Under the pieces are notes generated by a model. That model was not told where the DNA came from. It did no database searches and worked only from the letters and a program-made list of their open reading frames with translations. Positions 4,770 to 63,399 of a stretch of DNA of 64,000 nt are shown here, one piece after another. Within the stretch, counting starts at the first letter, position 1. Each line of letters begins with the position of its first letter. Origin of the DNA: Xylona heveae TC161 (taxonomy: Eukaryota > Ascomycota > Xylonomycetes > Xylonales > Xylonaceae); assembly GCF_001619985.1 (NCBI RefSeq), contig NW_017264195.1:2232001-2296000 (forward strand), given 5' to 3'. The translations under genes and the position numbers were made by a program.

Positions 4770-7074
4770 TTAGGCAATATTACCTGCCATGCCTATGAAA
4801 AGAGCCTGCGCAGCTAATTGAAGAGACCATAGTCCTACCTTTTTGAAACGACGCATGCGAGCTTCTTGATCGACAACATCCCGAGCAAATGCTTCATATG
4901 TCTGGAGCTTGGATTAGCTGGAGTCTTAGAGCAATTTGAGACATTCGCGCTTACCTCAGCAGACAAATCGTCCATTAAACCGCTGTCGTAAATCGTCCAG
5001 CTTCCATCGAACTCGCTGGCCCTCTTTACTACCCGACAGTTGATTGGGATGAATGTGCGTCTTGAATTCATGTATGCGACAATTGGTCGAATAAGAGCAT
5101 TGTTGATGTATGAGAGATCTCTGGTAAACAAAGGAACGCCCGCTCGAATGTCATTCAGATGGACTCTAAGGTCCATGACAAGGAATCTCTTCTCGTCATC
5201 CGCCTTCTGAGTGGTTGGCGAAGGCGCTTCTTCCGAGTCCTTTTCCTCGGAGGACTTAGTGTTTCTGATCCCTGTGTAGTCCGAAATATATCGATTGCTT
5301 GTGACGGTGGCTTCCATTCGATCGTAGAAATCGGACATAACTTTCGCGATACTTTCGTCAGTATCGGCTGGGAGCATGATGTCGGCAACAATATCAACAT
5401 TGCCCTCGCGAATCCATGAAAATGGACCCTCAATACCGCGATTCAAATGATCAATGTTCAAACCATCAATTCGTAATCGACTATGCTTCTTCCAAGGATT
5501 TGGCGCTCCAGTAGCTTCCAGACCCTCTTTGAGCTGGGCCCCTGTTTGGCCGTGCGTTTGGCGTGGATGGATGGTGAATAAAGAGTCATCAAACGACCCT
5601 GACATCATATTTGCCGATAGAAAGTCGTAGAATAGCCATTGCTTTCTCAGCTGCGGAAGATCACAGGAGTAAATGCTGACGGAGAATGGACGGAAATCGC
5701 CTGGTTGGTAAACTGTGACGAGGAGATCCTCCATTTTGAAAGATTCGAGTTCAAAATCGCCAGGCAGATGTTCGTGTCTATAGCTTCTCGGATCGACATC
5801 CTCGTCTGACCAATAGACCGACCTACGGTCCACCACGCCGCGAACGCCTTTCACCTCCACGTTGCGTAGCAGTCCTTTTCCGTTGAACCACTTGGTAAAG
5901 GATAAGGTGACGTTGACATTTTCAATTGACAAGTCAAACTGAGTATAGTTATCATCCTCGTCCTCTTCAAGTCCAGTAGATGCGGCTTCTTCCTGGGTTT
6001 CATATTCTTTCGCCCTTTCAGCGGCTGCCGCTGCGGCAGCGCTTGCGGACGAACCCTTTGTTACTTTGGACTTTCCTAAACCAGGTCTTTTCGAAACGAA
6101 GACATTTTTGAGCGAAATCACACCATCCCCCCACTTAGGCACGATGGCAGATTCGAAGACAACCTTCACGCCAGATGATTTAGTAAGATAATTACCGATC
6201 CACCTTGTAAGAGTCTCTGGGTAAAACTGTCAGCACTGAAGTAAGCTGAGTAGTCAAGGAACCAACCTTGTGCAAATACAGTGTTGACTAAGAATATCAC
6301 GAGAGAGAAGAATGTTGTGGTCCCAACAATAATCCAAATCATATGCCCCACCAAAACCCAGGAGAAAAATGCACTGATATCGTCCATATTAAAGGGCCGC
6401 ACACTGCGGATGGAGAACCATTTAAATCGAACCTTTAATCGAGACCAGAACCCCGTTGCTGCTGCGAGAAGCTCTTCTTTCGAAGGCCGATGGATATTTG
6501 ACACTTGGGGTAGACGTTCTAAAATATGTTTATTTTGTTGGGACGAAGTACCGGAAGAATGTTCAGTGGCTGTGCTCTCCTTCGATTGCGAGTTATGTGA
6601 GGATTCGCGAGGTTGAGTAGCATGTTTCTCTCCAGTCTCACCACTTTTTGTGGCCGAGCTCTTGTTTCGTCTCCCAACCGCATCGCTGCGGACTTTTGCC
6701 TTGCTGCGAACGCCATTTTTCAATATCAGATTCCAGGTCGTGCCAACTGTATGGCTTGTAGAAGGACGCTGTCGAAGGAGATGTGTGTGAGCTACGGCGG
6801 TAGCAACTCCAGGAACTGATTTAGCCGGTTGCGAACGAAAAGACGAAGCGGCCGTTGAGAAGAGTCGATGAGATGAGGTGTTGTTTGTATGATTCAGACC
6901 GGGGAAATTAAAATTGGTCTTAATGCGAGTTGTTGGTATCACTGGACGAGACACAGAAGCTGCTGGAGATAGAATGCACTGTAGAGTGAGCGGACTTGCT
7001 CGTGTGGCTTTGTATAGAGGGCTAGCTGAAGCCCAGAGCTGAGCACATATCCTGCTTCGTACATCGCCAGTCAT
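4770..7074 (-). CDS. MDM31: Mitochondrial distribution and morphology protein Mdm31/Mdm32 family
   Basis: Inner-membrane protein needed for mitochondrial shape, nucleoid stability and cardiolipin homeostasis in yeast. Exons 6267-7074, 4955-6216 and 4770-4901 give 733 aa. The N-terminus is Arg/Ser-rich and suited to mitochondrial import. A transmembrane segment lies near 235-270 (VLVGHMIWIIVG, FFSLVIFLVNTVF). The family signature follows across intron 1: FAQETLTRWIGNYLTKSSGV, then VVFESAIVPKWGDGVISLKN. The C-terminus has a second membrane segment, VGLWSLQLAAQALFIGMAG. Introns are 50 and 53 nt with CCAG acceptors. Mdm31 and Mdm32 are paralogues; the name follows the single-copy filamentous fungal convention. 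Divergent from PNO1. Confidence 0.9.
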
Positions 7075-18609: not shown

Positions 18610-21600
18610 CTAATTGAGGAAGCCTTTACAGCCAGAAGAGCCACACAAGCAAGGAATACGATCGTCGCTGTCGAATTCACGCTCGAATTTGTAATCGTAC
18701 GTGAGTTCTTCGTCTGTTGGATTCAGTTAGCGGGAATAGTTCACAGAGTGCTTGAGAAAGAAACAGGGAAGTCTGTAGGTTTGAGAGTATCGAAGCCGTA
18801 TAAGATGTAAAGTGAAGTATATTGACAGTGAAGTATAATGACCGTGAAGAATAATGACTAGCACTTACTTTGAGCAATGTCCCGAAGGGCATAAATGACG
18901 ATCCGCTTGCTTCCTTCGACCTTGATAATCTTTGCCGTGCAGTTTGGCGTGCAACTGTGGTTGATGAATCGGGCAATGCCTCCACGCTTGGTCGCGTCGA
19001 TGACGGTGGTTTCATCAATTCGGAACAAGTAGCTGCTTCCAATGCCGCTCTTGAGATATCGTCTCTCGCGCATATCTGCCACCTGCTGTCGGACCTTTTC
19101 GCCCACGTATTCGATAATCATGTCGTTGGCAGAGATATTCTCCATGGCGTACAGACCCCAGTTGTGGATGGCGGAGCGGGCAAACTTGACCGGCTTCTTT
19201 CTCTTCTTGAGCTGGTTGAACCGAAGCACGTCCGCATCACCGCTAATGACTTGCTTCTGAGCGTTAATGTCGGCGACGAGGCGGCGGTTGTTCGCACGGT
19301 TAGAGCGCGATGATGAGCCGGAGATGCTCTTGGCAGCAGCAAGCTTGGCTGCGTCCACGACCGACTGTGTCTCGTTCTTGGCTTGCGCTTCGCGTTCCTC
19401 TCTGGCCTTTTGCACGCGGATGCGGTGCGGCAGGTATTTGGACTTTTCAGACTCCAAAATCTTCTTTGTGCCTTCTGTCCGTGCCGAGCCTGAAGCGTTC
19501 GGGACATAGTATCCTTCAATCATTGTCTTGCTCCGCACTGGTCCGCGCTCGCCGCCCCGGTTGAGAGCCTTAATCTCCTTTTGTTTCCATGCCCAAGCGG
19601 CCGCGTGGCCCAAGTCAGCCTCTGGCTCGTCCTTGAGCACGTCTTGAAGGAAGTGGAGATCTTCATTGTCCTTGATGAGATGTTGCCATCCATCCAGGTC
19701 GAGGATAATACTCTCGTCATCCTCCACGGTTCGCCTGGGTACATCTGAAGATACGCCCCATTCCACCTCCGCCCTCGGAGGTTCAACCTCGGCTTCTGGC
19801 TCAATCTCCTCCTCTGGCTGCGGCTCCTCCTCGATTTCCTCGGCAGGTTGCTCCTCTTGAATATCTTCGAGCAGCGCTCTCTCTTGTGCCTTTTTGAGTT
19901 CCCGTTCCTCAAACAACTGCTTCTTCGACTTCTTCTTTGGCTTCGCGCCCTTCTTCTTCGGTTTTGTCTTGGCCGTGGCCTCTGTCGCGTCAGGTAGTTC
20001 GCCGAGATCTTCCACCGGAGTTTCGGCTTCGGCCTTGACTTCCTGCTCCTCTCCAGGTACTTCAATCTCGATATTGATGGGCGCGGCTTCAAATGTCTCA
20101 ATGTCCTCCCTCTCAATACCAAACAACTTATCATCCTCTCTCTGTTTCTTTCGTGCCTCCAGTTCCTTGAGTAACCGTTTTCTCTTCTTGGAACTCAACG
20201 GCAGCATGTTCGCTTCGCGAGCAAGCTCTTCTATACTAGCATCCACCGTCTCATCCCTGTAGGCATCAGAGTGGATAAATGTCGTAGCTTGGCCGTCTTC
20301 GCCTTCATCTTCACCGCCCCATCGAGATTCCAAGTCTTCTTCTGTGCGGTCTTTGACCGGTACTTTGGCGTTTTCGTCTTCTGACTCGGCACTGGTGGTG
20401 CTCATCCTGCTAAGAGGCCTGCTCTCCTGCTCTTCAGTATCTCTCGTCATTGGCGTCCTTTGCTCATCTTCCGAGTCCTCCTCATCGTAGAATTGATGAA
20501 GCCGGTGGTGAAGAGGTCGAATATCAGCCTTTCTAGGCACAGGCCGTTTTCGCCGCTCGTCGGCAAAGCCCACAATGCCTTGCTTTGTGCCAGCACCCTT
20601 CCTGATTCGAGGCAGTGCCGTGATGTTAAGGGTCGAGGAGCCAAGCGGCCGGCGTTGGCCTGCTGCCATCGGATCGGCCCGCGAATCTGGCGTACCAGCC
20701 AGAGGACTCTCATCGGTTCGCTCAATGTGAATCGTGGGCCGCCGGGTGTCATACGGATCAGAAATTCCCAGCCTGCGTCTTTTGTCGACGTGTCGGTCGG
20801 GATCGAGGTAGTTGAAGAGTGCCGGCCCAGCGATGCGAGACTTGATGTCGCTCAGAAGCTTCTCAATGAGTTCTCGTCTCACAATGTCGGCAGCCTCTCG
20901 CACAGGGTCTAAATCGCTCGCTCTTTGCTTCTTTTGGATTTCAATCTCTTGCTCATATTCCACCCTGCGCCGTTCTCGCTCGGCCTTGTCGCGTTTCTCC
21001 GCTTCCACCTGGCCAGGACTCGGGCTGCGTTCGTAGCTGGGATTGCCATATTGCTGACATTCCATATTCATGATATATGTAAAAAGTGGCGTCATATGAC
21101 ACGCCTTGTAGCATCGCAAGGCCTCGTCCTCACCACGTCGGGAGTTGTCAAAAATGACATAGTACCCTGTTTTATCCAATCGGACCTCCTTCCAATCGAA
21201 AGCCTTCAAACGCTTCTTAAGGTGCGAGACCGTTGTGCTAAGAACCGGGACATAGCAATGGGCGATGAAGATGTAAGGCTCCCGCTTTAGCTGGTTCAGG
21301 ATCGGGCTTTCCTCCACTAGAGATGGAAATCCTGGCCGGCTGGTATTCTTTGGGCCTTCGGGAATCTTTGGTGCGACCTTGACTGAGGGGCCCTTGGGTG
21401 CGGTTGGGGGCGGCGCAGAGTTCGGGACGGTTTGCGGAGGCGTCTCTTTTTCTTCCGGCTTCTTCTCTTCACCTCTTAATCGATGGAGCACCGCCTCGAC
21501 GGCGCGTCTACATCGCCGACCTTCTCGATCTCTCTCAACCCGCACAGTGTACGTCCCAATGCGCTGGCCAGTGCCCCCTTTCTCCGCCCTTCTCGCAGCA

Positions 21601-23910: not shown

Positions 23911-26368
<2,458 letters not shown>

Positions 26369-31931: not shown

Positions 31932-32765
31932 ATGACTACACATGAGGACCTCATCGCTCTCCTCTCCCGCAACCTTACATTTTCGAACCCTAATAATATT
32001 GATTCACATGGGTTGTCGGATATTCCATCGCCCAGTAATCCGCCTCCAATTACATATTCCATCACTCAGCATTATCACCACTCTGCCCATCAGGTAACAG
32101 CTGCGCCTGCTGAAACTCAGGAGTCTACCTTTGGACAACAGGATCGCGAAGCTGCCGAAGATATCTTGCGCAGTCATGGAGTTGAGCCGTCGAATCTCTT
32201 TCCCTCTCAAGTGACATTGTTTATGCACGCTGGTCCTGAAGAGCAATTTCGCCTTCTAGAACTCTGGCGAAGCTCACCGCCCAGCTACGGCGGGCACGAG
32301 CTAGCGCGAGACTTGAATAACTGGCCTGCTACTAGCTTGGAACAAGAGGAAGTCATGGCTCGGCTTAGACAAGAAAGACAGGCATCAGAAGAAGAAAGGA
32401 GACTCCTTCTCCTGTCCCCTCCAAGCATCAGTAGCCAAGAGGAGGAAATGGGGGATGCAGAACCTGACGTTCCTCTGGCTCTGACCCCAATTGAAGCTGG
32501 CGATGGACGCAGCCTTGCCGAGCCTTACATTCTGAACGGATACGATGTTGATGGATACAGCGACATGATTGAACCATTGACCAAACCAACCACTTATGTT
32601 CAAGCGATAGATCCGGTCTTCAAAGGGTCAGAATACCTTGGCAATTTTGTTGGAAACCAGGCTTTGGGAGACCAGTATGGGCCTTTTGAGCACATGAGGC
32701 AGTACGCCCAGATGTCTGGCGGTTTTGCGGGTGTGCACGAGTTGCATGATGAAGAGATGCTCTAG
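31932..32765 (+). CDS. Conserved-looking fungal protein of unknown function
   Basis: Single-exon frame of 277 aa that I do not recognise as a named family. It starts MTTHEDLIALLSRNLTFSNP. A middle segment reads like a short helical domain (REAAEDILRSHGVEPSNLFP, VTLFMHAGPEEQFRLLELWR) and is followed by a Glu/Arg-rich coiled-coil-like stretch (EQEEVMARLRQERQASEEER). The C-terminus (YGPFEHMRQYAQMSGGFAG) looks like a conserved tail. There is no signal peptide or membrane segment. Codon use and composition look like a real gene, and a clear in-frame ATG follows a long pyrimidine-rich leader. Probably soluble; role unknown. Confidence 0.7.
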   Translation: MTTHEDLIALLSRNLTFSNPNNIDSHGLSDIPSPSNPPPITYSITQHYHHSAHQVTAAPAETQESTFGQQDREAAEDILRSHGVEPSNLFPSQVTLFMHAGPEEQFRLLELWRSSPPSYGGHELARDLNNWPATSLEQEEVMARLRQERQASEEERRLLLLSPPSISSQEEEMGDAEPDVPLALTPIEAGDGRSLAEPYILNGYDVDGYSDMIEPLTKPTTYVQAIDPVFKGSEYLGNFVGNQALGDQYGPFEHMRQYAQMSGGFAGVHELHDEEML

Positions 32766-33401: not shown

Positions 33402-35066
33402 TTAGAAGGCAGTCTTCGGGTTCCATCCGATAGCAACGACGCGGGACGGCGCATAGCAGCTCAAGGCACCCAAATAAGCCAGACCAGCAAAGATGATCAA
33501 GCCCCAATAGGCACCACCCGTGGCAGTCAGGAGCTGGCCTCCGATTGGAATGCTCGTCAACGTGCTACAACGGAATCCATCAGCCTTGCACGTCAAAAGA
33601 GACAAATGAATAAAATAGATAGAAAAAAGAAAGAAATAAGGTAAAAAGAAGAAAAGGACGTGGTTACTCACCCAAAGCTAGCAAAGAAATAGGACGTAGC
33701 AAAGTAACGGCCATAATCCTCAGCTCGGCAGAGTTGCGACAGGCAAACTGGAATGAGGCCCAAGTTACTGCCACTGGCAAAGCCAAACGAGATGGCAAAG
33801 ACAATAATCACGGCTCGTGAATCTGCAGCTGGCAGCCAGATAGCCAAAACAGTAATGGCACACAGCAAGATTGTCACAATGATGACGTTGAACCTGCCGA
33901 GCTTGTCTGCCAGGAGCCCTGGAAGCCAGCGTCCAAAGAAACTTCCTGAATTCAGCAACGCGACAGCAGTGAAGCCAAAAGAAGGGTCTTGGCCATGCGT
34001 AGTACAGTACGAGCTAATGTACGTCAAGGGGACAAAAAGACCCCACTCCATCAAAAACATCCCAGCGGAGCACAGTGCGAAGCTGGGATCCTTGAAAGCA
34101 GTCAGGTCAGGAAGCAAGCTTCCCGAGGCCTTCTTAGACGGCGGCAACCGCTTCACGATGAAGAGGTTGGCAGGGACCGCCAACAACAGAAAGAGAAACC
34201 CAATGACGCGGGTTGACCAGGCAAAGCCAATCTTGGGAATCAGCCCCTGCAGCATCACTGGGATGACGATGCCGCCGATAGAGCCGCTGGTGCAAGCAAC
34301 TCCCGTTGCGAGACCGCGACGGCGCTGAAAAAAGTGACCAATGGATGCATAGGCGGGGGTGTTGAGAAGCGCTCCTCCTATACCTCCGAGGACTGCATAA
34401 TCAAGCATGAACTGCCAGTATTCTTATTTTACCATAGTTAGCCCATTTTTGCATAAGGTAATTGCATGCTGTCAGAAAGTATAACTAACCAGTGCAGAAG
34501 CCCAATAACATCATTGATAAGACCAGGGCCAGGCTGCCAAATGCAACCAGAAGTCGCGGGCCATGCACATCGAAGATTCCTCCAATGTACAAGCCACAGA
34601 AGAAAACCAGGAATAGGTTCAGACTGAAGATCCACCCAATCGAGCCAGGCGAGTACCCGCGAAGCTGATGGTTGCTGAAGTAGTCCTGCAGTGCGGCCGT
34701 AGAGTTCACGACACCAAATACCATGAACATGGCACAAAAGGAGCCGAATACGACGAGCCAGGCTTGGAAACCTCCCTCGGGAAACTCGTAATCTGCGTCG
34801 TCGTCTTCATTGTTGTCGTCTGAATGATTCCCAGTTTCGTGGGTACTTTGCTGAGGACCAAGTGGTGGTGAGGCTGCTATATCAGCCGTTGGGTCCAGCG
34901 AAAGACTGTCCTTTTCTTCAGAGAGTTCGGACAAGTCATTGGTGATGGCTTTATCCCCATTCACGCATTTTGGAAGTGGAGAGGGGGAGTTACGAGCGGT
35001 CTCGCCCGCAGCGATAGAGTGGTTTTTTAGGCAGGTGTCCTCTGCATAAAATCCGCCATGGTGCAT
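33402..35066 (-). CDS. MFS monocarboxylate-transporter-like protein
   Basis: Membrane transporter of the fungal monocarboxylate porter family (MCT/MCH). Exons 34490-35066, 33672-34422 and 33402-33564 give 496 aa. A cytosolic N-tail with acidic runs (SDDNNEDDDADYEFPEGG) leads into the usual family start FQAWLVVFGSFCAMFMVFGV. Later come LQDYFSNHQLRGYSPGSIGW, EYWQFMLDYAVLGGIGGALL, GHFFQRRRGLATGVACTSGS and DKLGRFNVIIVTILLCA. Twelve membrane helices are expected. Intron 1 ends at AATAAG (34423-34425); only this restores CTEYWQFMLDY. The C-terminus is NPKTAF. Substrate cannot be predicted; budding yeast Mch proteins do not carry monocarboxylates well. Confidence 0.9.
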
Positions 35067-36091: not shown

Positions 36092-36643
36092 TTACAGAGC
36101 GGCGACAGCATCAGCAGCAGCCTTTGCCAAAGCATCGGCAGCGCGCTTAGCCTTAGAGCAGCCCTGGCCAGGAAGGTGGCAGAAATGGACGGTGTCTGGG
36201 TTAGCCTCGGGCACAGGAGCTGGCTCGGCAAGTGCATCAGCAATGGCCGCAGCAGCGCGCTTGACCTTAGAGCAGCCTTGGCCGGGAAGGTGACAGAAAC
36301 GCTCAATAGCTTCAGCATTCGGCTCTGGTCCGGCGACGGCATAAGCGTCAGCCACAGCAGCGGCGAGAGCGTCAGCAGCACGCTTGGCTTTAGAGCATCC
36401 CTGGCCCGGCAGATGGCAGAAATGAACAGTGTCTGGGTTAGCCTCGGGGGCTGCAGCGGGAGCAGCAAAGGCGAGGGCCTCAGCTGCGGCATCGGCAGCA
36501 CGCTTGAGCTTCGAGCAGCCTTGTCCGGGAAGATGGCAGAAGCGGATGATGGCGTCCGCGTCCGGCGCGGGAGCCGGCGCCGCTGCTGCATCGACGGAAA
36601 CGCTGGCCAAGATGGCCGCCGAGATGAGAGTAAGGAGCTTCAT
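36092..36643 (-). CDS. ppgA: Alpha-type mating pheromone precursor (ppgA/ppg1-like)
   Basis: Secreted precursor of the alpha-factor-like sex pheromone, sensed by the Ste2/PreB receptor of the opposite mating type. Single exon, 183 aa. A signal peptide (MKLLTLISAAILASVSVDA) is followed by four copies of FCHLPGQGCSK at residues 35-45, 75-85, 116-126 and 154-164. Each copy is followed by one variable residue and a Kex2 site: LKR, AKR, VKR, AKR. The core Cys-x6-Cys with Pro-Gly-Gln is the Pezizomycotina alpha-pheromone pattern. Spacers are Ala/Pro/Glu-rich and read as X-Ala or X-Pro dipeptides in phase, the substrate of Ste13-type dipeptidyl aminopeptidase. Copies 2 and 4 follow DTVH; copies 1 and 3 follow IIR or IER. 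Phe precedes the first Cys where I recall Trp in relatives. Confidence 0.95.
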   Translation of the reverse strand: MKLLTLISAAILASVSVDAAAAPAPAPDADAIIRFCHLPGQGCSKLKRAADAAAEALAFAAPAAAPEANPDTVHFCHLPGQGCSKAKRAADALAAAVADAYAVAGPEPNAEAIERFCHLPGQGCSKVKRAAAAIADALAEPAPVPEANPDTVHFCHLPGQGCSKAKRAADALAKAAADAVAAL

Positions 36644-44152: not shown

Positions 44153-47081
44153 CTACAGGTTTTCCTGAAACTTGGAGTCGCGGACAGGACTAATCGAGGC
44201 GCCTCTTCCATTTACAGCCACATCGTGAATTGGTGGTGGCGGGGCCAGACTCTCTTCGTCAACGGTGTCACGGGCTTCTTCAAAATTATCCTCTTGGCGC
44301 GAATGAGTGGACGATCCGTCTGCCAGGCGTTTTGGTGAACGTCCTCGCCCGGCGTCTTGACCCCTGGCCGCGCTTTCGAGAGAGCTAATCGAGGGAGACC
44401 TGGAGGCACGTTTCTTGCCGGCGGCCGTTGCTGCTGCGGCTTCTTCTCCGGCCGACGAGACAGAGTAAAGACCATCGTCATGCTCATCGCTACGACCGGC
44501 TACAGCAACCTCACGCACGGAGCCGTCAGTCGCTGGCTCGCCTCCTGGGGCGTTGGCGGCCGCAGCACCGCCGTCATTACTGGCACGAGCGAGAGATGCG
44601 CCGCCAATAAAGGATCTGGACTCGGGATGCTGCTGGTCTTCACCACCAGAGGAAGTAGGTCGGTCACTTTCAGAAGATTTCTTGCCGTGACGTGAAAAAT
44701 GGTTCTTGAGCCAAGCTTTGACTTTGGAATCATGTTTGGGTGATGTCGGTGATGGAGTCCCGGATGATGAAGTGGCGCCGGTTGCGGCCGCACCGACGAC
44801 AGCTGCACCCGCCATCTGGTGGACTGGGGTAGTAGGTCGGTCCTCTGCAGTGGCGGGCTCAGCTGCAGGTGCTGAAGGAGCCTCTGCGGTTTCCGGTTCA
44901 ACGCCGACTTCTGCGTCTTCTTCCGCCTCGGGCGCCCTGGCCACTGTGGGAGACGAGGGTTGAGATGCAGTGGTCGCCTCAGCTGCGGCACCACCAGTGA
45001 CTGCTCCGGCGGCTGTAGCCTCTTCTGCGGCAGGCTCTACGGCGGCAGCGCCACCTGTCTGCTCCTTTTTCACCTCCTTGGACCTTCGCTTCTCTTCCTT
45101 TTGCTGCCGTTTCAGCTCTGCCTTTCGTGCCTTTTCCTCTTCTTTCCTAGCACGCTCCGCTTGCTTTTCCTCTTCTATATTTGCGAGTTAGCAGAGCCAA
45201 TCAAATATATATATATCTTTCGAATTGGCTACTTACGCTTGGTACGTTTGTCGTCAGCTTTCATCTCAGCATCACGTTCCCTTTCCACCAAAGCAAGACG
45301 CTTCTTTTCTTCAGCATCCAATTTCTCCTCTATCTCTTTTGCTCGGCGTTCCTCGGCCTTTTCGTCAATCTCATCGAGAGTTGGCTGCACGTTAGCCAAG
45401 GCAACTGCATCAATATCGGATTGATCAACAAATTTGCCTCCACCAATGTGAACCTTGCCTTGGTTGGCCGTGCGAGCCTCGCTGTCAGCTTCCGCTTTGG
45501 CTCTGGCTTTGGCTTCCCATTCTTCCATCAATGCCGGTGGAACTTTCCCAGTCTCAGCAAAAACCCGCTCATCCATTCCATGCATGCTGGTCCGAACGTT
45601 TCTCTGCGCTGCGGCAAGAAGGGCCTCTCGGTCTTTCTGTCTCTTGTCGGCATCAACCTTTGCTAATTTATCATTAAAGATATTCATTTGTGAGCGAATT
45701 TTCCGAGATTCTTCGAGGTCGTCAAACGCCGAGCTGTCACTTGAGGCTCGTCGTCGAGGACGTCTGATGGAGCGCCGAACCGATGGCGGATTCATGCCAT
45801 AATAATTGCGGTATGCGGCGGTCTCATCCTGCTGAATCCTTGCAAGACGCTCTGCTGCGAGTTTCTGAGCCGTTTCCTGTAGATTTACGAATTTGGGAAC
45901 GTGTGACGTTGTGCCGGTTGGGTTAGAGGCATTACCGGGGACTCCCCGGCTGTGTGCCGCTGTTGCTGCGTGGTGACCACTAGAGTAGCCGCCGCCTGAA
46001 CCTTGGTCAATGGATTGTTGCTGGAGATCGTACATTTGTTTCGCCATGGATATTGCAGCTGCACGTAGACCATCTTGCTTCTTCTTCTCTTCTACTTCAA
46101 TTGAGACCGGGGGGGTTGCAGAATACATCTCACGAGAGATGTTACTCTTTGCGATATTGTGTATTCGGCTTGCTTCCTGAGAGGACATGGCTGGAGACTC
46201 GGTCCGATTGGCTGCTGGGACCTTTTGCGATGGGCGATGAGCCACTGTCGCAGCATTGAGCGCATTGGCCGCTGAATTTTCTGCATCTGGGTAAGACGGC
46301 CTCACAACTGGGGAAGACTCTGCTCTCCGTCTGTTGCCAGACATTGCCCCTGTAGCAGCCAACAATGCACGTCGATTACCCTCCGGCGTGTGGCCGTAGT
46401 CAATTTTGGGACTTAGACCAGGAGTCCTCATTGCCTGGCCTGCCGCTGTATTACCGTGCGGGGTCTTCTCTGGGAGCCAGATATCAACATTCCCACCTTC
46501 TCTATGCGCTAATAGGGCGGCCTTGCTACCAGCAGCGCTCAGTTCGGGCTTCCAGGGTGCGGCAGGTTTATAGTCTTTGGCCAGCATGGCAGCAGCGCTT
46601 GCTGAAGCTGAAGAATCGGGCCTCCAGTGTTCAAATGGTTTTTGATTTGCATGTGCCAGGCTAGCAGCAGCTCCGGCAGAAGACTCCTTGTGGGCAAGCC
46701 CTAGCACAGGGTACGATGGAAGAGTAGTCGGATCAGCATGCTTCAAAGATGCGGCAGCACCTAGCTGGACGTATTAGACCAGCGAAGAGATAATTAGACA
46801 TGGTGTGTTTCGTACCTGCCGCGGAAAGCCGGTGATCGGCATCCAGAGGATAGTGACTCTCTCCCTTACTAGGAGAAGACTCAGGGTGTCCAGTATACAA
46901 CGCTGCCGAGGCTGCCTAGAAGAAGGACAACACTTAGCTCGTACTCTGAAATTGTCTTACGAAGATGCAAAAGAGTATCAAATACCTGGTCCTCTAGCTT
47001 GCTTGAGTCGGTATGATGGCTAGCAGCTGATTTCGGTGGAGGATGCGCAAGCTGCGCAGCTTGAGTTGCTGCTGTAGCCAT
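44153..47081 (-). CDS. EIS1: Eisosome protein 1 (Eis1)
   Basis: Peripheral component of eisosomes, the plasma-membrane furrows organised by Pil1/Lsp1. Four exons, 46986-47081, 46816-46915, 45237-46760 and 44153-45174, give 913 aa. It begins MATAATQAAQLAHPPPKSAA. The first 250 residues contain degenerate Ala-rich units, for example AAASLAHANQKPFEHWRPDS, AAAMLAKDYKPAAPWKPELS and KAALLAHREGGNVDIWLPEK, each with a Trp-Pro-like element. This is the repeat pattern of fungal Eis1. A long Glu/Arg/Lys-rich coiled coil (about 500-620) follows, then a low-complexity Ala/Glu/Ser tail ending in SKFQENL. Phosphorylation by Pkh kinases is known for the family; nothing here proves it. Confidence 0.9.
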
Positions 47082-52267: not shown

Positions 52268-53425
52268 TTATGGAATCGGAAACGAGTGAAGGATCCTGTT
52301 CTGTTCGCTTTTTGAAACTCCATTGAAAACTTTCTCGCCTGCTTCTCCTCCTTTCGCGGTATTGACAAACCTTGAATATTCGTCATTGGAACCGGGGCTC
52401 TCAAAGACAATATTAACATGATCGATATCGAACTTGTATCGCCTTTTGTTGGAGGGCTTTACTAGCTCGATTACAAACCCGGTACTGTTGTCTGCAAATT
52501 GGCCGTGAACAGTTCCGTTATATTTGAGGCTGAAGATACTATAATCTTCCGACGATGAGGCATTGGCTTTCGTTGACGCGAAGACGGTTTCTCCGGCTTT
52601 CTCTAGGTACGCATACGTATGCGTCTGTCTGTCAATGGACGAAACAAAAGTCCAGTATACCAAAGAATAGGGGCCGGTAACAGCTCTAGCCCACCACCAG
52701 TGGTCAGCGATGAAATCCCATATGAAGGGACCCCAGTTCCTGTCAAACCCCCCGATACCTTCGAACTGGAGGGCGTTGCCATTGAGCACCAAATTAGCCG
52801 TCACCCTGCCAGCAGGGACCGCTTCGTTCCAATAGATTAAAGGCGCCAAGGTGACAGACGCGTTTCCATTAGGAAAAGATGAGCCATCCGGATAACGTGC
52901 CTTGGTGAAAGAGTTTAGAGTATATGTTCCTTGGAATCCTGGACCATCGAGTTGAACAGTCGACTGAGAAAAGTCATTGGAAATGGCGTAGCTGGAAATG
53001 AGATTGTTGCTTGTCCAAAAACCTTCGGTCCAATAATCACTACCTCTCACAAGGGAGTTCTCTGCAAATGCCACGGTGTTGAAACGTGAGCCATTAGACC
53101 AGACTGCATCTACACTGACGCGCAGGATTCCTTGGCCCAGATAAACGAGGGAAGGGTCCCGGAAGAAAGCAAGAGTCACGCCGGCAGAGCCATTTGATGA
53201 TACTCCGTCAAAATACCAATATTCCCATGCCGTAGCATTGATTGACGATATTTTCGGTTTTGCAAATGGGGTTAATGGAGAAGTATCGATTGGTACGGAT
53301 CCATTGACAATATCGGACGCTGAAACTTGGCTCACAAAAGCTGGGGATTGATGCACATATGCAGGATTTGCCAAAGAAATGGAACCTTGGAAAAGTAAGG
53401 CCAAAAGGACATTTTGGAGCAACAT
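52268..53425 (-). CDS. Secreted CrtC/AttH-fold protein, Diels-Alderase-like
   Basis: Single-exon 385-aa protein with a signal peptide (MLLQNVLLALLFQGSISLAN) and many Asn-x-Ser/Thr glycosylation sequons, so probably secreted. The body resembles the hydroxyneurosporene-synthase-like (CrtC) double-lipocalin family that includes fungal Diels-Alderases such as Fsa2 and CghA. I base this on the order TAWEYWYFDGVSSNGSAG, EGIGGFDRNWGPFIWDFIAD, VTGPYSLVYWTFVSSID, FVIELVKPSNKRRYKFDIDH and GEAGEKVFNGVSKSEQ, which lines up with my memory of Fsa2. Known pathway enzymes of this group sit beside polyketide synthases; none is present here. Catalytic activity is not shown; it may be a secreted lipocalin-like protein with another role. 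Confidence 0.8.
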   Translation of the reverse strand: MLLQNVLLALLFQGSISLANPAYVHQSPAFVSQVSASDIVNGSVPIDTSPLTPFAKPKISSINATAWEYWYFDGVSSNGSAGVTLAFFRDPSLVYLGQGILRVSVDAVWSNGSRFNTVAFAENSLVRGSDYWTEGFWTSNNLISSYAISNDFSQSTVQLDGPGFQGTYTLNSFTKARYPDGSSFPNGNASVTLAPLIYWNEAVPAGRVTANLVLNGNALQFEGIGGFDRNWGPFIWDFIADHWWWARAVTGPYSLVYWTFVSSIDRQTHTYAYLEKAGETVFASTKANASSSEDYSIFSLKYNGTVHGQFADNSTGFVIELVKPSNKRRYKFDIDHVNIVFESPGSNDEYSRFVNTAKGGEAGEKVFNGVSKSEQNRILHSFPIP

Positions 53426-59172: not shown

Positions 59173-60531
59173 ATGCCCCGACGGGGAAGACCACCAGGGT
59201 CGGGACTACGGAGGAAGGTCGTGGATTGGAGGAAGCAGCGAGATTTGGACGATCTGAGGAAATATGACGATACGGAAAGTGACGAGGGTGAATTGCGAGC
59301 GAGAGATATGCGCATGGTTGGTGGGCGATTCGTGAGTGACGAGCTACGGTTTACCGGGTATGATTTGGGACAGCGAGGGGATGATTCCGAGTCCGCAGAG
59401 GAGGTATTTGGACATGACGTTTCGGAAGATGACACTTTGCACACATTGTCACCTACGGAACGAGAAGACTTTTTGATTGACACGGCAATGGAACGAATAC
59501 GGCGCGCACAACAATCTGGGCAAAGCAATGTCAGCCTTAGTAAAGCTGAAATGGAAGCCCTCGAGGGTCTCCGAAGCCAGCGAAATCGGTCGGGCGGAAA
59601 GCAAAGCAGCTTGGGCAGAGTATCAGGCAGCGACCAAGGCCGGCGAGCTCGCGAACTCTCCAATGCATCCCTGAGTTCAAAAGCATCGAGTGGTCCACGG
59701 AGCAGAAGATCATCAATGCTTGGAGAAGATAGTCCACCATATTCTACCGGTGGCGGTCTAGCTCCACCAGGCTTCGTGGTTCGCGAACCCAACGGCGGCA
59801 CCACGTACGCACCTTTGGGCTACTATGGCCAACCGGCTATCCGCTCTCCATCAGCAAACTCATCGGCCGCCCTCTCAGACAGCTCGCCTCGGCTTCATTC
59901 GAGTCGATATTACTCCCCACCTGAGAATAACATTTCAAGCACTCTTCATCCACTGTCACCAGCGCTTTCAGCGCGAGGCGGTCCCGTCGATGAGCTTGAC
60001 TGGTCGCCACGGTCTCGCTCTCATTCTGCCGCTCAGATTTGGAACCTTGACCCTTCTTCGCCTCACTCAACCCAACCACAGCCGTACTCGCCAACATATT
60101 CATCGTCTTCGCCTTACTCCGAGCCACGACATAACTGGTCCAGCCCATCGGAGCTGCAGTACTCTGCAATCCGGCGAGTTCCGCCACCTGCCACTGCGGC
60201 CACCATAGCCCGCTATCCGCGTGCTCCGGCCCGCGTCCCGCCTGTGAGCTCTACCTCTGATCCTTCAGTCGCAACTCGCAGGAGACCAGTGGCTCCTGAC
60301 TCGTCGTGGATCAATGTTGAACCTTCTGCCAGCGGTCCTGGCAGCGGTGCTGCTGCATACGATTACGATACGGGTGACGATGAGGTTAGAGTCATTGAGC
60401 GAACTCCCTCCGCCGGCGGGCTCTTGACAACTGCTTCTCCCTCTTCTTCGCCTGCCGATGCTCCTGGGTCATCTGCTCGCTCAGGGTCAGGGAATGCGGC
60501 CTATACTCGTCAACGGAGGCAAAAGCGATAG
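59173..60531 (+). CDS. Ser/Pro-rich protein of unknown function, tightly downstream of YIP3
   Basis: 452 aa in one exon beginning MPRRGRPPGSGLRRKVVDWR. The reading frame is open upstream into YIP3, but this is the first ATG. The N-terminal 120 residues look conserved and charged: RKQRDLDDLRKYDDTESDEG, RMVGGRFVSDELRFTGYDL, and a helix TEREDFLIDTAMERIRRAQQ followed by VSLSKAEMEALEGLRSQ. The remainder is a Ser/Pro/Tyr-rich disordered tail with many possible phosphorylation sites, ending QRRQKR. There is no membrane segment. A 26-bp gap from the previous stop leaves no room for a normal promoter, suggesting a shared transcript, a promoter inside YIP3, or a splice variant joining the two. Confidence 0.75.
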   Translation: MPRRGRPPGSGLRRKVVDWRKQRDLDDLRKYDDTESDEGELRARDMRMVGGRFVSDELRFTGYDLGQRGDDSESAEEVFGHDVSEDDTLHTLSPTEREDFLIDTAMERIRRAQQSGQSNVSLSKAEMEALEGLRSQRNRSGGKQSSLGRVSGSDQGRRARELSNASLSSKASSGPRSRRSSMLGEDSPPYSTGGGLAPPGFVVREPNGGTTYAPLGYYGQPAIRSPSANSSAALSDSSPRLHSSRYYSPPENNISSTLHPLSPALSARGGPVDELDWSPRSRSHSAAQIWNLDPSSPHSTQPQPYSPTYSSSSPYSEPRHNWSSPSELQYSAIRRVPPPATAATIARYPRAPARVPPVSSTSDPSVATRRRPVAPDSSWINVEPSASGPGSGAAAYDYDTGDDEVRVIERTPSAGGLLTTASPSSSPADAPGSSARSGSGNAAYTRQRRQKR

Positions 60532-61844: not shown

Positions 61845-63399
61845 ATGGATCTCAAAGACTTCCCGGCCCATGCGCCTCCAAAAGCAACGAAAAGGTTGCG
61901 TTTTGCTGATGTACGTTGCCTCTTACATTCAAATCGCAAATAGAATCTAGATTAAATGGAGAAAGAAAGAAAGGAAGGAAGAAAGAAAGAGAAGGGTGAT
62001 AAGAAATGAACAAAAAGAAGGAATAAAAAAAGAAAAGAAGAACATGACGGAAGCCAAAGAAACCAAGGAAAAGAGGAAAAAGAAACGAAGAAAGAGAAAA
62101 ACAAAGCAGGAGTCAAATAAACAAAAGGGAAAGCATAATTCAAAGACAATAGGCATGCTAATTATATTATCCCAGGTCGCAGTAACAGCAACCGCCAAAG
62201 AATTCGCAGGCATCTACCGCAACAACAAGCAATATCACCCTGCGGACTTTGACCGCACGCTCGATCGGGCACTTGTTGCGGGCGTTGAGAAGGTGCTTTT
62301 GACGGGCATGTCCCTGGGTGATATCGCGCACAATGCTGGAATTGCGCAATCTCGCCCGAATCAGTGTTTTTTTACTGTCGGTGTGCACCCGTATCATGCC
62401 AACGAGATGTATGAGGGCGGGGAGGAGTATCTGGGGATATTAAGGCGGGAAGTTCGGGCTTTAGTGCAATTGCAACAGCAGCCAGGGCCGCAAGCGCAAC
62501 AACCACAGCAACAACAACAGCAGCAGCAGCAGCAGCAGCAGCAAACTCGTCCTCTCGCTGCGTATGGAGAATTGGGACTGGACTATGACAGACTACAGCA
62601 CGCGTCCAAGGAGGCGCAGATATATGCATTCAAAGCGCAACTCGATCTCTTCGTTTCAGAAAGGCTCGACTTGCCGTTGTTTTTGCACTGTCGAGGAACA
62701 GCAGCAGCAGCAGCAGCAGCATCCACTGCTACTGAAGCCACAACTGGAACCACAACTGGAACCACAACTGGAACTACAACTGGAACTACAACTGGAACTA
62801 CAACTGGAACTGCAACTGGAACTACAAGTGGAACTGCAACTGGAAGTAGAACTGAAGCCACAACTGGAACTACAAATGAAGCCACAAATGGAAGTACAAC
62901 TGAGACGACAAATACAACTACAACAGCAACTGGAGTATTTGACGATTTCGTCAACATCCTAACACCCTACCTGCCGAACCTGCCACGACGGGGACTGGTG
63001 CATAGTTTCGTGGGCCCCGCGCGTCAGATGCAGAAACTAGTGGAGCTCGGGTTCGACATCAGTGTCAATGGGTTTAGCTTCAGGGACGCAGAGAGCCTGG
63101 CGATGGTGGCTGCAGTTCCGCTGGACCGGTTGCAGCTTGAGACGGATGCGCCGTGGGGCCAGATAGAAGACCGGATGGAGGTGGCGAAGCGGTATTGTGT
63201 CAATGCGTCCGCGCTACCGGCGGCAGCAAAGAAAAAGGACAAGTGGGACGCGGCGTGCATGGTCAAGGAGAGGAATGAGAGCTGCGCGATGGAGAGGGTG
63301 GCGTTTATAGTTGCGGGGCTCAAGGGGATTGGTGTGGAGGAAGTTGCGGAAAGGGCATGGGAGAATAGTGTTAAAATGTTTGGTCTTGGTGAAGCATAA
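61845..63399 (+). CDS. TatD-family metal-dependent hydrolase (TATDN1-like), repeat-expanded
   Basis: Homologue of TatD deoxyribonucleases. Exons 61845-61910 and 62176-63399 give 429 aa. The start MDLKDFPAHAPPKATKRLRF precedes the usual beta strand. Recognisable are FAGIYRNNKQYHPADF, FFTVGVHPYHANEM, AAYGELGLDYDRLQ (metal-ligand Glu), LPLFLHCRG (His), LVHSFVGPARQMQKLVELGF (His), LQLETDAPWG (Asp) and KWDAACMVKERNESC. The segment that is IGINLTDP in human TATDN1 reads VAVTATAK here, so the Asn and Asp at the metal site are missing. Two insertions swell the protein: 13 consecutive Gln (about 132-144) and an Ala run plus some 70 residues of Thr/Gly repeats (about 197-277). Activity is therefore doubtful. 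Confidence 0.9.
62739..62860 (+). repeat. In-frame Thr/Gly-coding minisatellite inside the TatD-like gene
   Basis: Tandem 12-bp units of the form ACAACTGGAACY encoding Thr-Thr-Gly-Thr, about ten copies with decay toward the 3' end. A CAG/CAA tract encoding poly-Gln lies at about 62503-62541 and a GCA tract encoding poly-Ala near 62698-62720. Confidence 0.9.

What the first reader, a model, noticed from the sequence alone, without database searches (positions are those of the whole stretch)
36092..36643. Pheromone precursor predicts two alternating classes of mature peptide
Sequence shows four FCHLPGQGCSK copies. Counting dipeptides from each Kex2 Lys-Arg, the spacers read AA-DA-AA-EA-LA-FA-AP-AA-AP-EA-NP and similar, always X-Ala or X-Pro, until DT-VH before copies 2 and 4, or II/IE before Arg-Phe at copies 1 and 3. 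A Ste13-type peptidase should therefore stop at DTVH-F or at I(I/E)R-F. If so, the gene releases two N-terminal forms in alternation (IIR, DTVH, IER, DTVH), with a C-terminal residue L, A, V or A left after Kex1 trimming. Copies 2 and 4 with their flanks are near-identical, suggesting duplication of a two-repeat unit.
Basis: partly seen in the sequence, partly recalled or inferred. Interest (0 to 1): 0.75.

Follow-up and report, generated by a model that had tools for sequence, protein, structure and literature searches.

The report
Fungal pheromone precursor, two peptide starts
A fungal mating-pheromone gene carries four copies of the same peptide core, but the short stretch in front of the core alternates between two types where related genes mostly keep it alike, so one gene may release two versions of the signal.

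Summary
Confirmed: a 183-codon minus-strand ORF (36092-36643) encodes a signal-peptide-like start, four FCHLPGQGCSK cores, Lys-Arg sites and spacers reading X-Ala/X-Pro in one phase (33 of 33 dipeptides after Lys-Arg), leaving IIR, DTVH, IER and DTVH. It is an alpha-pheromone precursor, probably the Xylona heveae candidate reported in 2019. The genome also holds Ste2, Ste3, a Kex2-type P-domain, S10 carboxypeptidases and a DPP4/Ste13-family peptidase.

Relatives support the N-terminal boundary: in 33 genes the three residues before the aromatic residue agree between copies 1 and 2 at 69 of 99 positions, 26 by permutation; spacers show little or no excess. The window gene is the outlier: 0 of 3 tail matches for copies 1/2 and 3/4.

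Full alternation was seen in none of 14 other sets, but identical copies 2 and 4 with a departing copy 3 recur (9 of 15, window included). Any duplication looks old. Mature peptides were not measured. Most likely: a typical precursor with two unusually divergent N-terminal classes.

The parts
36092..36643 (-). alpha-pheromone precursor ORF, 183 aa plus stop
   Evidence: homologous to proteins named Pheromone / Mating alpha-pheromone PpgA
36587..36643 (-). predicted signal peptide, residues 1-19 (cut after SVDA assumed from the -3/-1 rule, no predictor run)
   Evidence: sequence; inference
36551..36586 (-). spacer 0, six X-Ala/X-Pro dipeptides
36542..36550 (-). N-terminal tail of copy 1: IIR
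36509..36541 (-). core copy 1 FCHLPGQGCSK, followed by L-Lys-Arg at 36500-36508
36434..36499 (-). spacer 1, 11 X-Ala/X-Pro dipeptides
36422..36433 (-). N-terminal tail of copy 2: DTVH
36389..36421 (-). core copy 2 FCHLPGQGCSK, followed by A-Lys-Arg at 36380-36388
36308..36379 (-). spacer 2, 12 X-Ala/X-Pro dipeptides; several relatives appear to have an intron here, none in the window
   Evidence: intron inferred from relatives' ORFs
36299..36307 (-). N-terminal tail of copy 3: IER
36266..36298 (-). core copy 3 FCHLPGQGCSK, followed by V-Lys-Arg at 36257-36265
36197..36256 (-). spacer 3, 10 X-Ala/X-Pro dipeptides
36185..36196 (-). N-terminal tail of copy 4: DTVH
36152..36184 (-). core copy 4 FCHLPGQGCSK, followed by A-Lys-Arg at 36143-36151
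36095..36142 (-). C-terminal remainder AADALAKAAADAVAAL, similar to the end after the last copy in some relatives (P0002, P0029, P0039)

Best explanation
This is the alpha-pheromone (ppg1/ppgA/MFalpha-type) precursor of an ascomycete, probably Xylona heveae. Proposed route: signal peptidase, then Kex2 after each Lys-Arg, Kex1-type trimming of basic C-terminal residues, and a Ste13-type dipeptidyl aminopeptidase that removes the in-phase X-Ala/X-Pro dipeptides and stalls at the first dipeptide not ending in Ala/Pro. Released ligands would begin IIR-F or IER-F from copies 1 and 3 and DTVH-F from copies 2 and 4, share FCHLPGQGCSK, and act on the Ste2 receptor found in the genome. In this clade the N-terminal stretch is part of the ligand, and this gene carries two divergent versions of it. 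Shown: anatomy, phase, presence of processing-enzyme and receptor families, within-gene agreement of tail and core in relatives. Inferred: each proteolytic step, the mature ends, and recognition by Ste2.
For: Anatomy and phase. Of 212 parsed sites downstream of a Lys-Arg in 106 proteins, the Lys-Arg phase leaves at most 5 residues (aromatic included) at 124, the shifted phase at 11. Tail agreement: 69 of 99 residues between copies 1 and 2 against 26.4 by permutation, 38 of 57 between copies 3 and 4 against 18.5; 0 of 20,000 permutations as high in each. By column, agreement beyond permutation starts at -3 (weaker at -4) and runs to +9. Genome: a DPPIV_N match at 3e-115, DPP4 family by sequence at 5e-86, with a hydrophilic start and membrane helix by my reading; Kex2-type P-domain; S10 carboxypeptidase loci; Ste2; Ste3. 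PMC6339444 (passages) names RFCHLPGQGCSK in X. heveae a candidate sexual alpha pheromone. PMC9769878 (passages) reports peptides detected after removal of XA/XP motifs.
Against: No expression or peptide data. The phase of copy 1 rests on an assumed signal-peptidase site. Arg before Phe in copies 1 and 3 could be a monobasic cleavage site, and several relatives carry Arg-Arg there, a possible Kex2 site that would remove the tail. Spacer controls are not perfectly flat: 31 against 26.6 (2,120 of 20,000 permutations as high) and 208 against 203 (1,594 of 20,000); in copies 1/2, columns +16 and +20 are reached by about 330 of 5,000 permutations. Many homologues have the aromatic residue directly, or after one residue, behind the dipeptides (57 of 212 sites with residual 1 or 2), so a tail is not needed for alpha pheromones in general.
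Confidence: 0.72

Rival explanations
1. The tails are trimmed further, by aminopeptidases, so that all four copies give one mature peptide beginning at Phe (or Cys), and the two classes are only processing intermediates or neutral leftovers.
For: In many homologues the dipeptides abut Trp or Phe directly (41 of 212 sites leave one residue). The core is identical in all four copies while the tails differ.
Against: In relatives the tail tripeptide agrees within genes far beyond permutation, unlike spacer. In the window, tail codons of same-class copies differ synonymously at four codons (I, R; T, V) while keeping I..R and DTVH, though the numbers are tiny.
Confidence: 0.15
2. A Kex2-like or yapsin-type protease cuts after the single Arg in IIR-F and IER-F, so copies 1 and 3 release FCHLPGQGCSK while copies 2 and 4 release DTVHFCHLPGQGCSK. 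Two classes exist, but with other ends than the reader proposed.
For: Arg precedes Phe only in copies 1 and 3. Several relatives have Arg-Arg there, which fits a Kex2 site.
Against: Ile or Glu before the Arg is poor for Kex2 (recalled specificity, no call). In relatives the residue swaps between Arg and His within one gene (for example P0010 MQR/IQH, P0036 IHH/IHR), which suits a retained basic residue better than a cleavage site.
Confidence: 0.1
3. The alternation is a by-product of local sequence copying between copies 2 and 4 and has no functional meaning. This concerns origin and can be true together with the best explanation.
For: EANPDTVHFC differs at 2 of 30 nucleotides between copies 2 and 4, against 11 of 51 downstream. 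Copies 2 and 4 are identical with copy 3 departing in 9 of 15 sets, which repeated copying between 2 and 4 would produce.
Against: The DNA difference is not significant (p = 0.12 by nucleotide, 0.11 by codon), and the downstream core codons of copies 2 and 4 have diverged synonymously. Selection on the even copies would give the same family pattern.
Confidence: 0.35

Closest known systems
Alpha-pheromone candidate of Xylona heveae, jgi|Xylhe1|266977 (PMC6339444, passages seen)
   Same: Same conserved motif RFCHLPGQGCSK; X. heveae genome 24.34 Mb (PMC4392786, one table passage) against 24.28 Mb here; probably the same gene
   Different: The motif given carries the Arg of copies 1 and 3 only. 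The passages I saw say nothing of the DTVH copies, the alternation or this gene's dipeptide phase. Identity of the two genes was not verified by sequence.
Four-copy relatives lined up (P0002; P0008 with P0029; P0022 with P0039; P0017 with P0110)
   Same: Similar spacers, Lys-Arg sites, dipeptide reading, hydrophobic-x-basic tail before the aromatic-Cys core; copies 2 and 4 identical over 14 residues
   Different: Copy 1 equals copies 2 and 4 in these, and copy 3 differs by 0 to 2 of 14; the window has two tail classes with 0 of 3 in common. An intron appears to lie between copies 2 and 3, absent in the window.
Aspergillus PpgA (for example P0062, P0077: WCHLPGQGC, two copies)
   Same: Nearly the same core (WCHLPGQGC against FCHLPGQGC), Kex2 sites
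   Different: Two copies; different tail; spacer holds extra dibasic sites
Precursors with non-identical repeats in Ceratocystidaceae (PMC13037118, passages seen)
   Same: One gene encoding several different mature alpha peptides, five unique ones in Br. fagacearum
   Different: No alternation by odd and even copy in the passages I saw

Membership tests
Ascomycete alpha-pheromone precursor | Secretory signal peptide at the N-terminus | tested here: inconclusive
   MKLLTLISAAILASVSVDA reads as one by eye; no predictor run
Ascomycete alpha-pheromone precursor | Repeated short cores with two conserved Cys, homologous to named alpha pheromones | tested here: met
   Four identical cores; homologues named Pheromone or Mating alpha-pheromone PpgA, for example P0062 at 4.1e-12 and P0026 at 2.6e-23
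Ascomycete alpha-pheromone precursor | Kex2 Lys-Arg after each core and X-Ala/X-Pro runs for a Ste13-type peptidase | tested here: met
Ascomycete alpha-pheromone precursor | Processing-enzyme families and Ste2 receptor in the same genome | tested here: met
   Ste2, P-domain, DPP4-family peptidase, S10 carboxypeptidases (which one is Kex1 was not resolved)
Ascomycete alpha-pheromone precursor | Secreted peptide with pheromone activity | not testable with these tools
   needs peptidomics and a receptor assay
KEX2-processed repeat protein (KEP) | Signal peptide plus repeated motifs separated by Kex2 sites | tested here: met
   repeats and sites; signal peptide by eye only; definition from passages of PMC9769878
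Pfam Cys_Knot_tox (PF17486) | Score above the curated cut-off | tested here: not met
   23.9 bits against 27, best stretch 15 residues; taken as a chance match to the Cys core

The most novel reading that the evidence does not exclude
One precursor encodes two functionally different ligands for one receptor: the I-x-R and D-T-V-H N-termini change potency or signalling bias at Ste2, so that odd and even copies deliver two messages in a fixed 1:1 ratio. In the wider family the even copies may be the constant ligand while odd copies are free to vary. (Raised from 0.12 to 0.15 after one search showed the recurring agreement of copies 2 and 4.)
Probability: 0.15. Interest if true: 0.65.

Novelty: new member of a known kind. 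Interest (0 to 1): 0.4.

Why it matters
Mature ends of filamentous-fungus alpha pheromones are often inferred from the precursor rather than measured. The comparison here gives a sequence-only way to draw them: positions that stay alike among copies of one gene, yet change between genes, mark the ligand. By that map this clade's ligand includes a three-residue N-terminal stretch and ends near Cys-Ser-Lys. The window gene is then a natural experiment, since it breaks the within-gene rule exactly there. A few synthetic peptides and one receptor would show whether the N-terminal stretch tunes Ste2.

Tried and rejected
Considered and rejected: (a) a recent duplication of a two-repeat unit, because the four positions are recognisable in relatives and copies 2 and 4 differ at 14.5 of 19.3 synonymous sites over 27 codons. 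(b) A cystine-knot toxin (under cut-off). (c) The overlapping ORFs on both strands as genes: taken as shadow frames of the repeat; not tested further. (d) A conserved tail-length rule. In the strict set of 16 genes with both first copies resolved to 3 or 4 residues, 10 are 3 then 4, 5 are 3 then 3, 1 is 4 then 4, none 4 then 3. In the wider hand-labelled set of 25 (P0036's first copy labelled by eye) one gene, P0198, is 4 then 3, and the 3/4 against 3/3 label needs 6 changes, with 174 of 500 shuffles as low.

Led nowhere: the MAT alpha-box search rang nowhere, controls included, so it says nothing. The sigma-70 scan does not suit a fungus. The PDB search with the precursor gave one match at E 8. 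Paper searches gave context or single passages only. No row named Xylona or Symbiotaphrina is in the listed rows (the last two capped at 120 rows; many rows are unnamed).

Selections and limits: the 33 genes (copies 1/2) and the 20 listed, 19 usable (copies 3/4; P0140 lacked two sites), both counting the window gene, were picked by me from the 251 proteins held. Left out were proteins whose dipeptides abut the aromatic residue, Aspergillus/Penicillium types, and rows without two regular cores. My search pattern fixes columns +1, +5, +8, +12 and +13 and allows only Lys/Arg at +10, so these columns carry no information. Column +11 is nearly constant in copy 2, so permutation has little power there; the argument rests on its difference between copies. 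Related genes are not independent; spacer columns of the same genes are the control. In one search first copies without an upstream Lys-Arg and spacers over 60 residues were not counted. In one search copy numbers were assigned by rule and a few rows (for example P0028, P0029, P0126) are misnumbered. The 15 sets were chosen by me; nine pair two ORFs by equal contig length and source only, and in five sets only three regular cores were found.

Full report
What is there. The minus strand of 36092-36643 encodes 183 residues without an intron. The protein starts with a signal-peptide-like stretch and holds four identical cores, FCHLPGQGCSK, followed by L-Lys-Arg, A-Lys-Arg, V-Lys-Arg and A-Lys-Arg. 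The exact pattern for the core occurs nowhere else in the 24.28-Mb assembly of 17 contigs. From each Lys-Arg the following residues read as 11, 12 and 10 dipeptides, all ending in Ala or Pro, and stop before DTVH, IER and DTVH. From an assumed signal cut the first copy gives six such dipeptides and stops before IIR. Ala-rich composition does not explain this: in 20,000 shuffles of each spacer's own residues the three spacers were never in phase together.

Who it belongs to. The homologue searches gave 105 proteins at E up to 10, then 219 and 299 at E up to 0.01 with profiles, 120 listed each. Rows with informative names include Pheromone (Pseudogymnoascus), Mating alpha-pheromone PpgA (Aspergillus) and Clock-controlled pheromone ccg-4; most rows are unnamed. 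PMC6339444 (passages) reports a candidate sexual alpha pheromone with the motif RFCHLPGQGCSK in Xylona heveae, by its own words the first in a xylonomycete. PMC4392786 (one table passage) lists that genome at 24.34 Mb. I take the window to be X. heveae or very near it; I did not verify it by sequence. The gene itself is therefore probably already in print. The searches for the core motif (one paper) and for X. heveae with pheromone (six papers, of which I opened only PMC6339444) showed nothing on the alternation; I saw listings and passages, not whole texts.

Machinery. The genome holds a Ste2 gene in two neighbouring pieces, Ste3 pieces, a Kex2-type P-domain, S10 carboxypeptidase loci (which is Kex1 was not resolved) and one DPPIV_N match; such counts are lower bounds by the tool's own note. 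The ORF around the DPPIV_N match (818 aa) has a long hydrophilic start followed by a hydrophobic stretch, as in Ste13-type membrane proteins (my reading), and matches solved DPP4 enzymes at 5e-86. Whether it sits in the Golgi like Ste13 or in the vacuole cannot be told.

Is the phase real in the family? I parsed 212 sites that follow a Lys-Arg in 106 proteins. Reading from Lys-Arg leaves five residues or fewer (aromatic included) at 124 sites; reading one residue later does so at 11. The other sites have phase breaks, read-through introns or other spacers, or are not pheromone cores.

Where does the ligand begin and end? If the tail before Phe is cut off, it should drift like spacer. If it is part of the ligand, copies of one gene should agree and change together. 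In 33 genes with copies 1 and 2, the three residues before the aromatic agree at 69 of 99 positions against 26.4 when copies are exchanged among genes. In 19 genes with copies 3 and 4 the figures are 38 of 57 against 18.5. No permutation of 20,000 was as high in either case. Spacer stretches of the same genes show little or no excess: 31 against 26.6 (2,120 of 20,000 permutations as high) and 208 against 203 (1,594 of 20,000). Column by column the excess starts at -3 (weaker at -4) and runs to the residue after the second Cys, +9. Column +10 is restricted to Lys/Arg by my own pattern. That is how spacer behaves, so I doubt that it matters to the ligand, though it may still be present on it.

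The window gene against its family. Of 33 genes, only the window gene and P0204 have no tail residue in common between copies 1 and 2. Of 19, only the window gene has none between copies 3 and 4. Yet same-class copies agree: I-x-R in 1 and 3, DTVH in 2 and 4, with synonymous differences at four of these codons. The two classes are thus unusual in degree.

Does the alternation recur? I lined up 15 sets, the window included: six single ORFs and nine pairs of ORFs of equal contig length and source; five of the 15 sets have only three regular cores. In 9 of 15 (P0001, P0002, P0008+P0029, P0022+P0039, P0133+P0157, P0151+P0163, P0182, P0185, and P0015, whose third core is degenerate) copies 2 and 4 are identical over 14 residues and copy 3 departs. 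In two (P0009+P0107, P0003) copies 3 and 4 are identical and copy 2 departs. In P0017+P0110 all four are identical, and P0007+P0118, P0036+P0126 and P0162+P0140 show no identical pair among copies 2 to 4. So agreement of the even copies is common, but two distinct tail classes paired odd with odd and even with even, as in the window, are not seen in the others; P0007+P0118 (VTR, VAR, VTR, EAR) is the nearest echo. These sets are related and chosen by me, so I give no probability. A tail one residue longer in copy 2 than in copy 1 occurs in 10 of 16 strictly parsed genes, but that label changes often on a weakly supported tree.

How it arose. The positional spacers and pre-KR residues of the four copies are recognisable in relatives, so the four-copy layout is old. 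Copies 2 and 4 of the window differ at 14.5 of 19.3 synonymous sites over 27 codons. Only EANPDTVHFC is nearly identical in DNA (2 of 30 differences against 11 of 51 downstream, p = 0.12; by codon p = 0.11). Local copying between copies 2 and 4, or selection that holds the even copies constant, would both fit; neither is shown.

Relation to what is known. Non-identical repeats within one precursor are documented in Ceratocystidaceae (PMC13037118, passages). Of 19 receptors tested with near-cognate peptides 14 responded, most with changed response, and one receptor that failed with the inferred ligand was activated by a candidate with two more N-terminal residues (PMC6265332, passages). Removal of XA/XP in repeat precursors is backed by peptidomics in Pichia and mushrooms (PMC9769878, passages). 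So the mechanism is established in kind. What I did not find in the passages seen is the two-class tail of this gene, the map of the ligand's borders, and the even-copy agreement.

Verdict. Observation confirmed; interpretation partly supported. N-terminal boundary: well supported by comparison. Two released classes: likely but unmeasured. C-terminal L/A/V/A: doubtful. Recent duplication: not supported. Function of having two classes: open, and cheap to test.

Noticed in passing
window 36308-36379 (spacer between copies 2 and 3): Several relatives' ORFs break between copies 2 and 3: first pieces run out after ..PEPGK or similar, and six second pieces start with MLT, as if at an ATGCTAAC intron branch site. 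The window gene has no intron there, so its lineage may have lost one. Inferred from proteins only.
   Followed up: partly
homologues: The first residues after each Lys-Arg show a consensus by copy number (about AADAAAEALA, AADALAEAVA, AAEAIAEALA, and a looser one after copy 4), although they should be discarded. They may serve folding or transport of the precursor.
   Followed up: partly
relatives P0133+P0157, P0151+P0163, P0182, P0185, P0015: Odd-numbered copies (1 and/or 3) look degenerate while copies 2 and 4 stay identical, as if only the even copies were held constant.
   Followed up: partly
relatives P0017, P0019, P0020, P0022, P0039, P0107, P0110, P0121: The tail reads Phe-Arg-Arg before Phe/Tyr-Cys, a possible extra Kex2 site that would make the mature peptide begin at the aromatic residue in those fungi.
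   Followed up: no
P0015 and P0185: Precursor-like proteins of Ptychographa xylographoides and Agyrium rufum carry the database name putative serine/threonine protein phosphatase, apparently a misannotation.
   Followed up: no
window 52268-53425 (-): A Diels-Alderase-family gene (PF24137/PF22903, AsqO-like), hinting at a secondary-metabolism locus nearby.
   Followed up: no
window 4835-5734, 6166-7074, 18858-21095, 24409-25515, 45229-46587, 62044-63399: Neighbouring ORFs match MDM31/32, SET1-type (N-SET and SET), SIS domain, Eisosome1 and TatD families; ORFs 31932-32765, 34485-35066 and 59173-60531 match no Pfam family at 1e-5.
   Followed up: no
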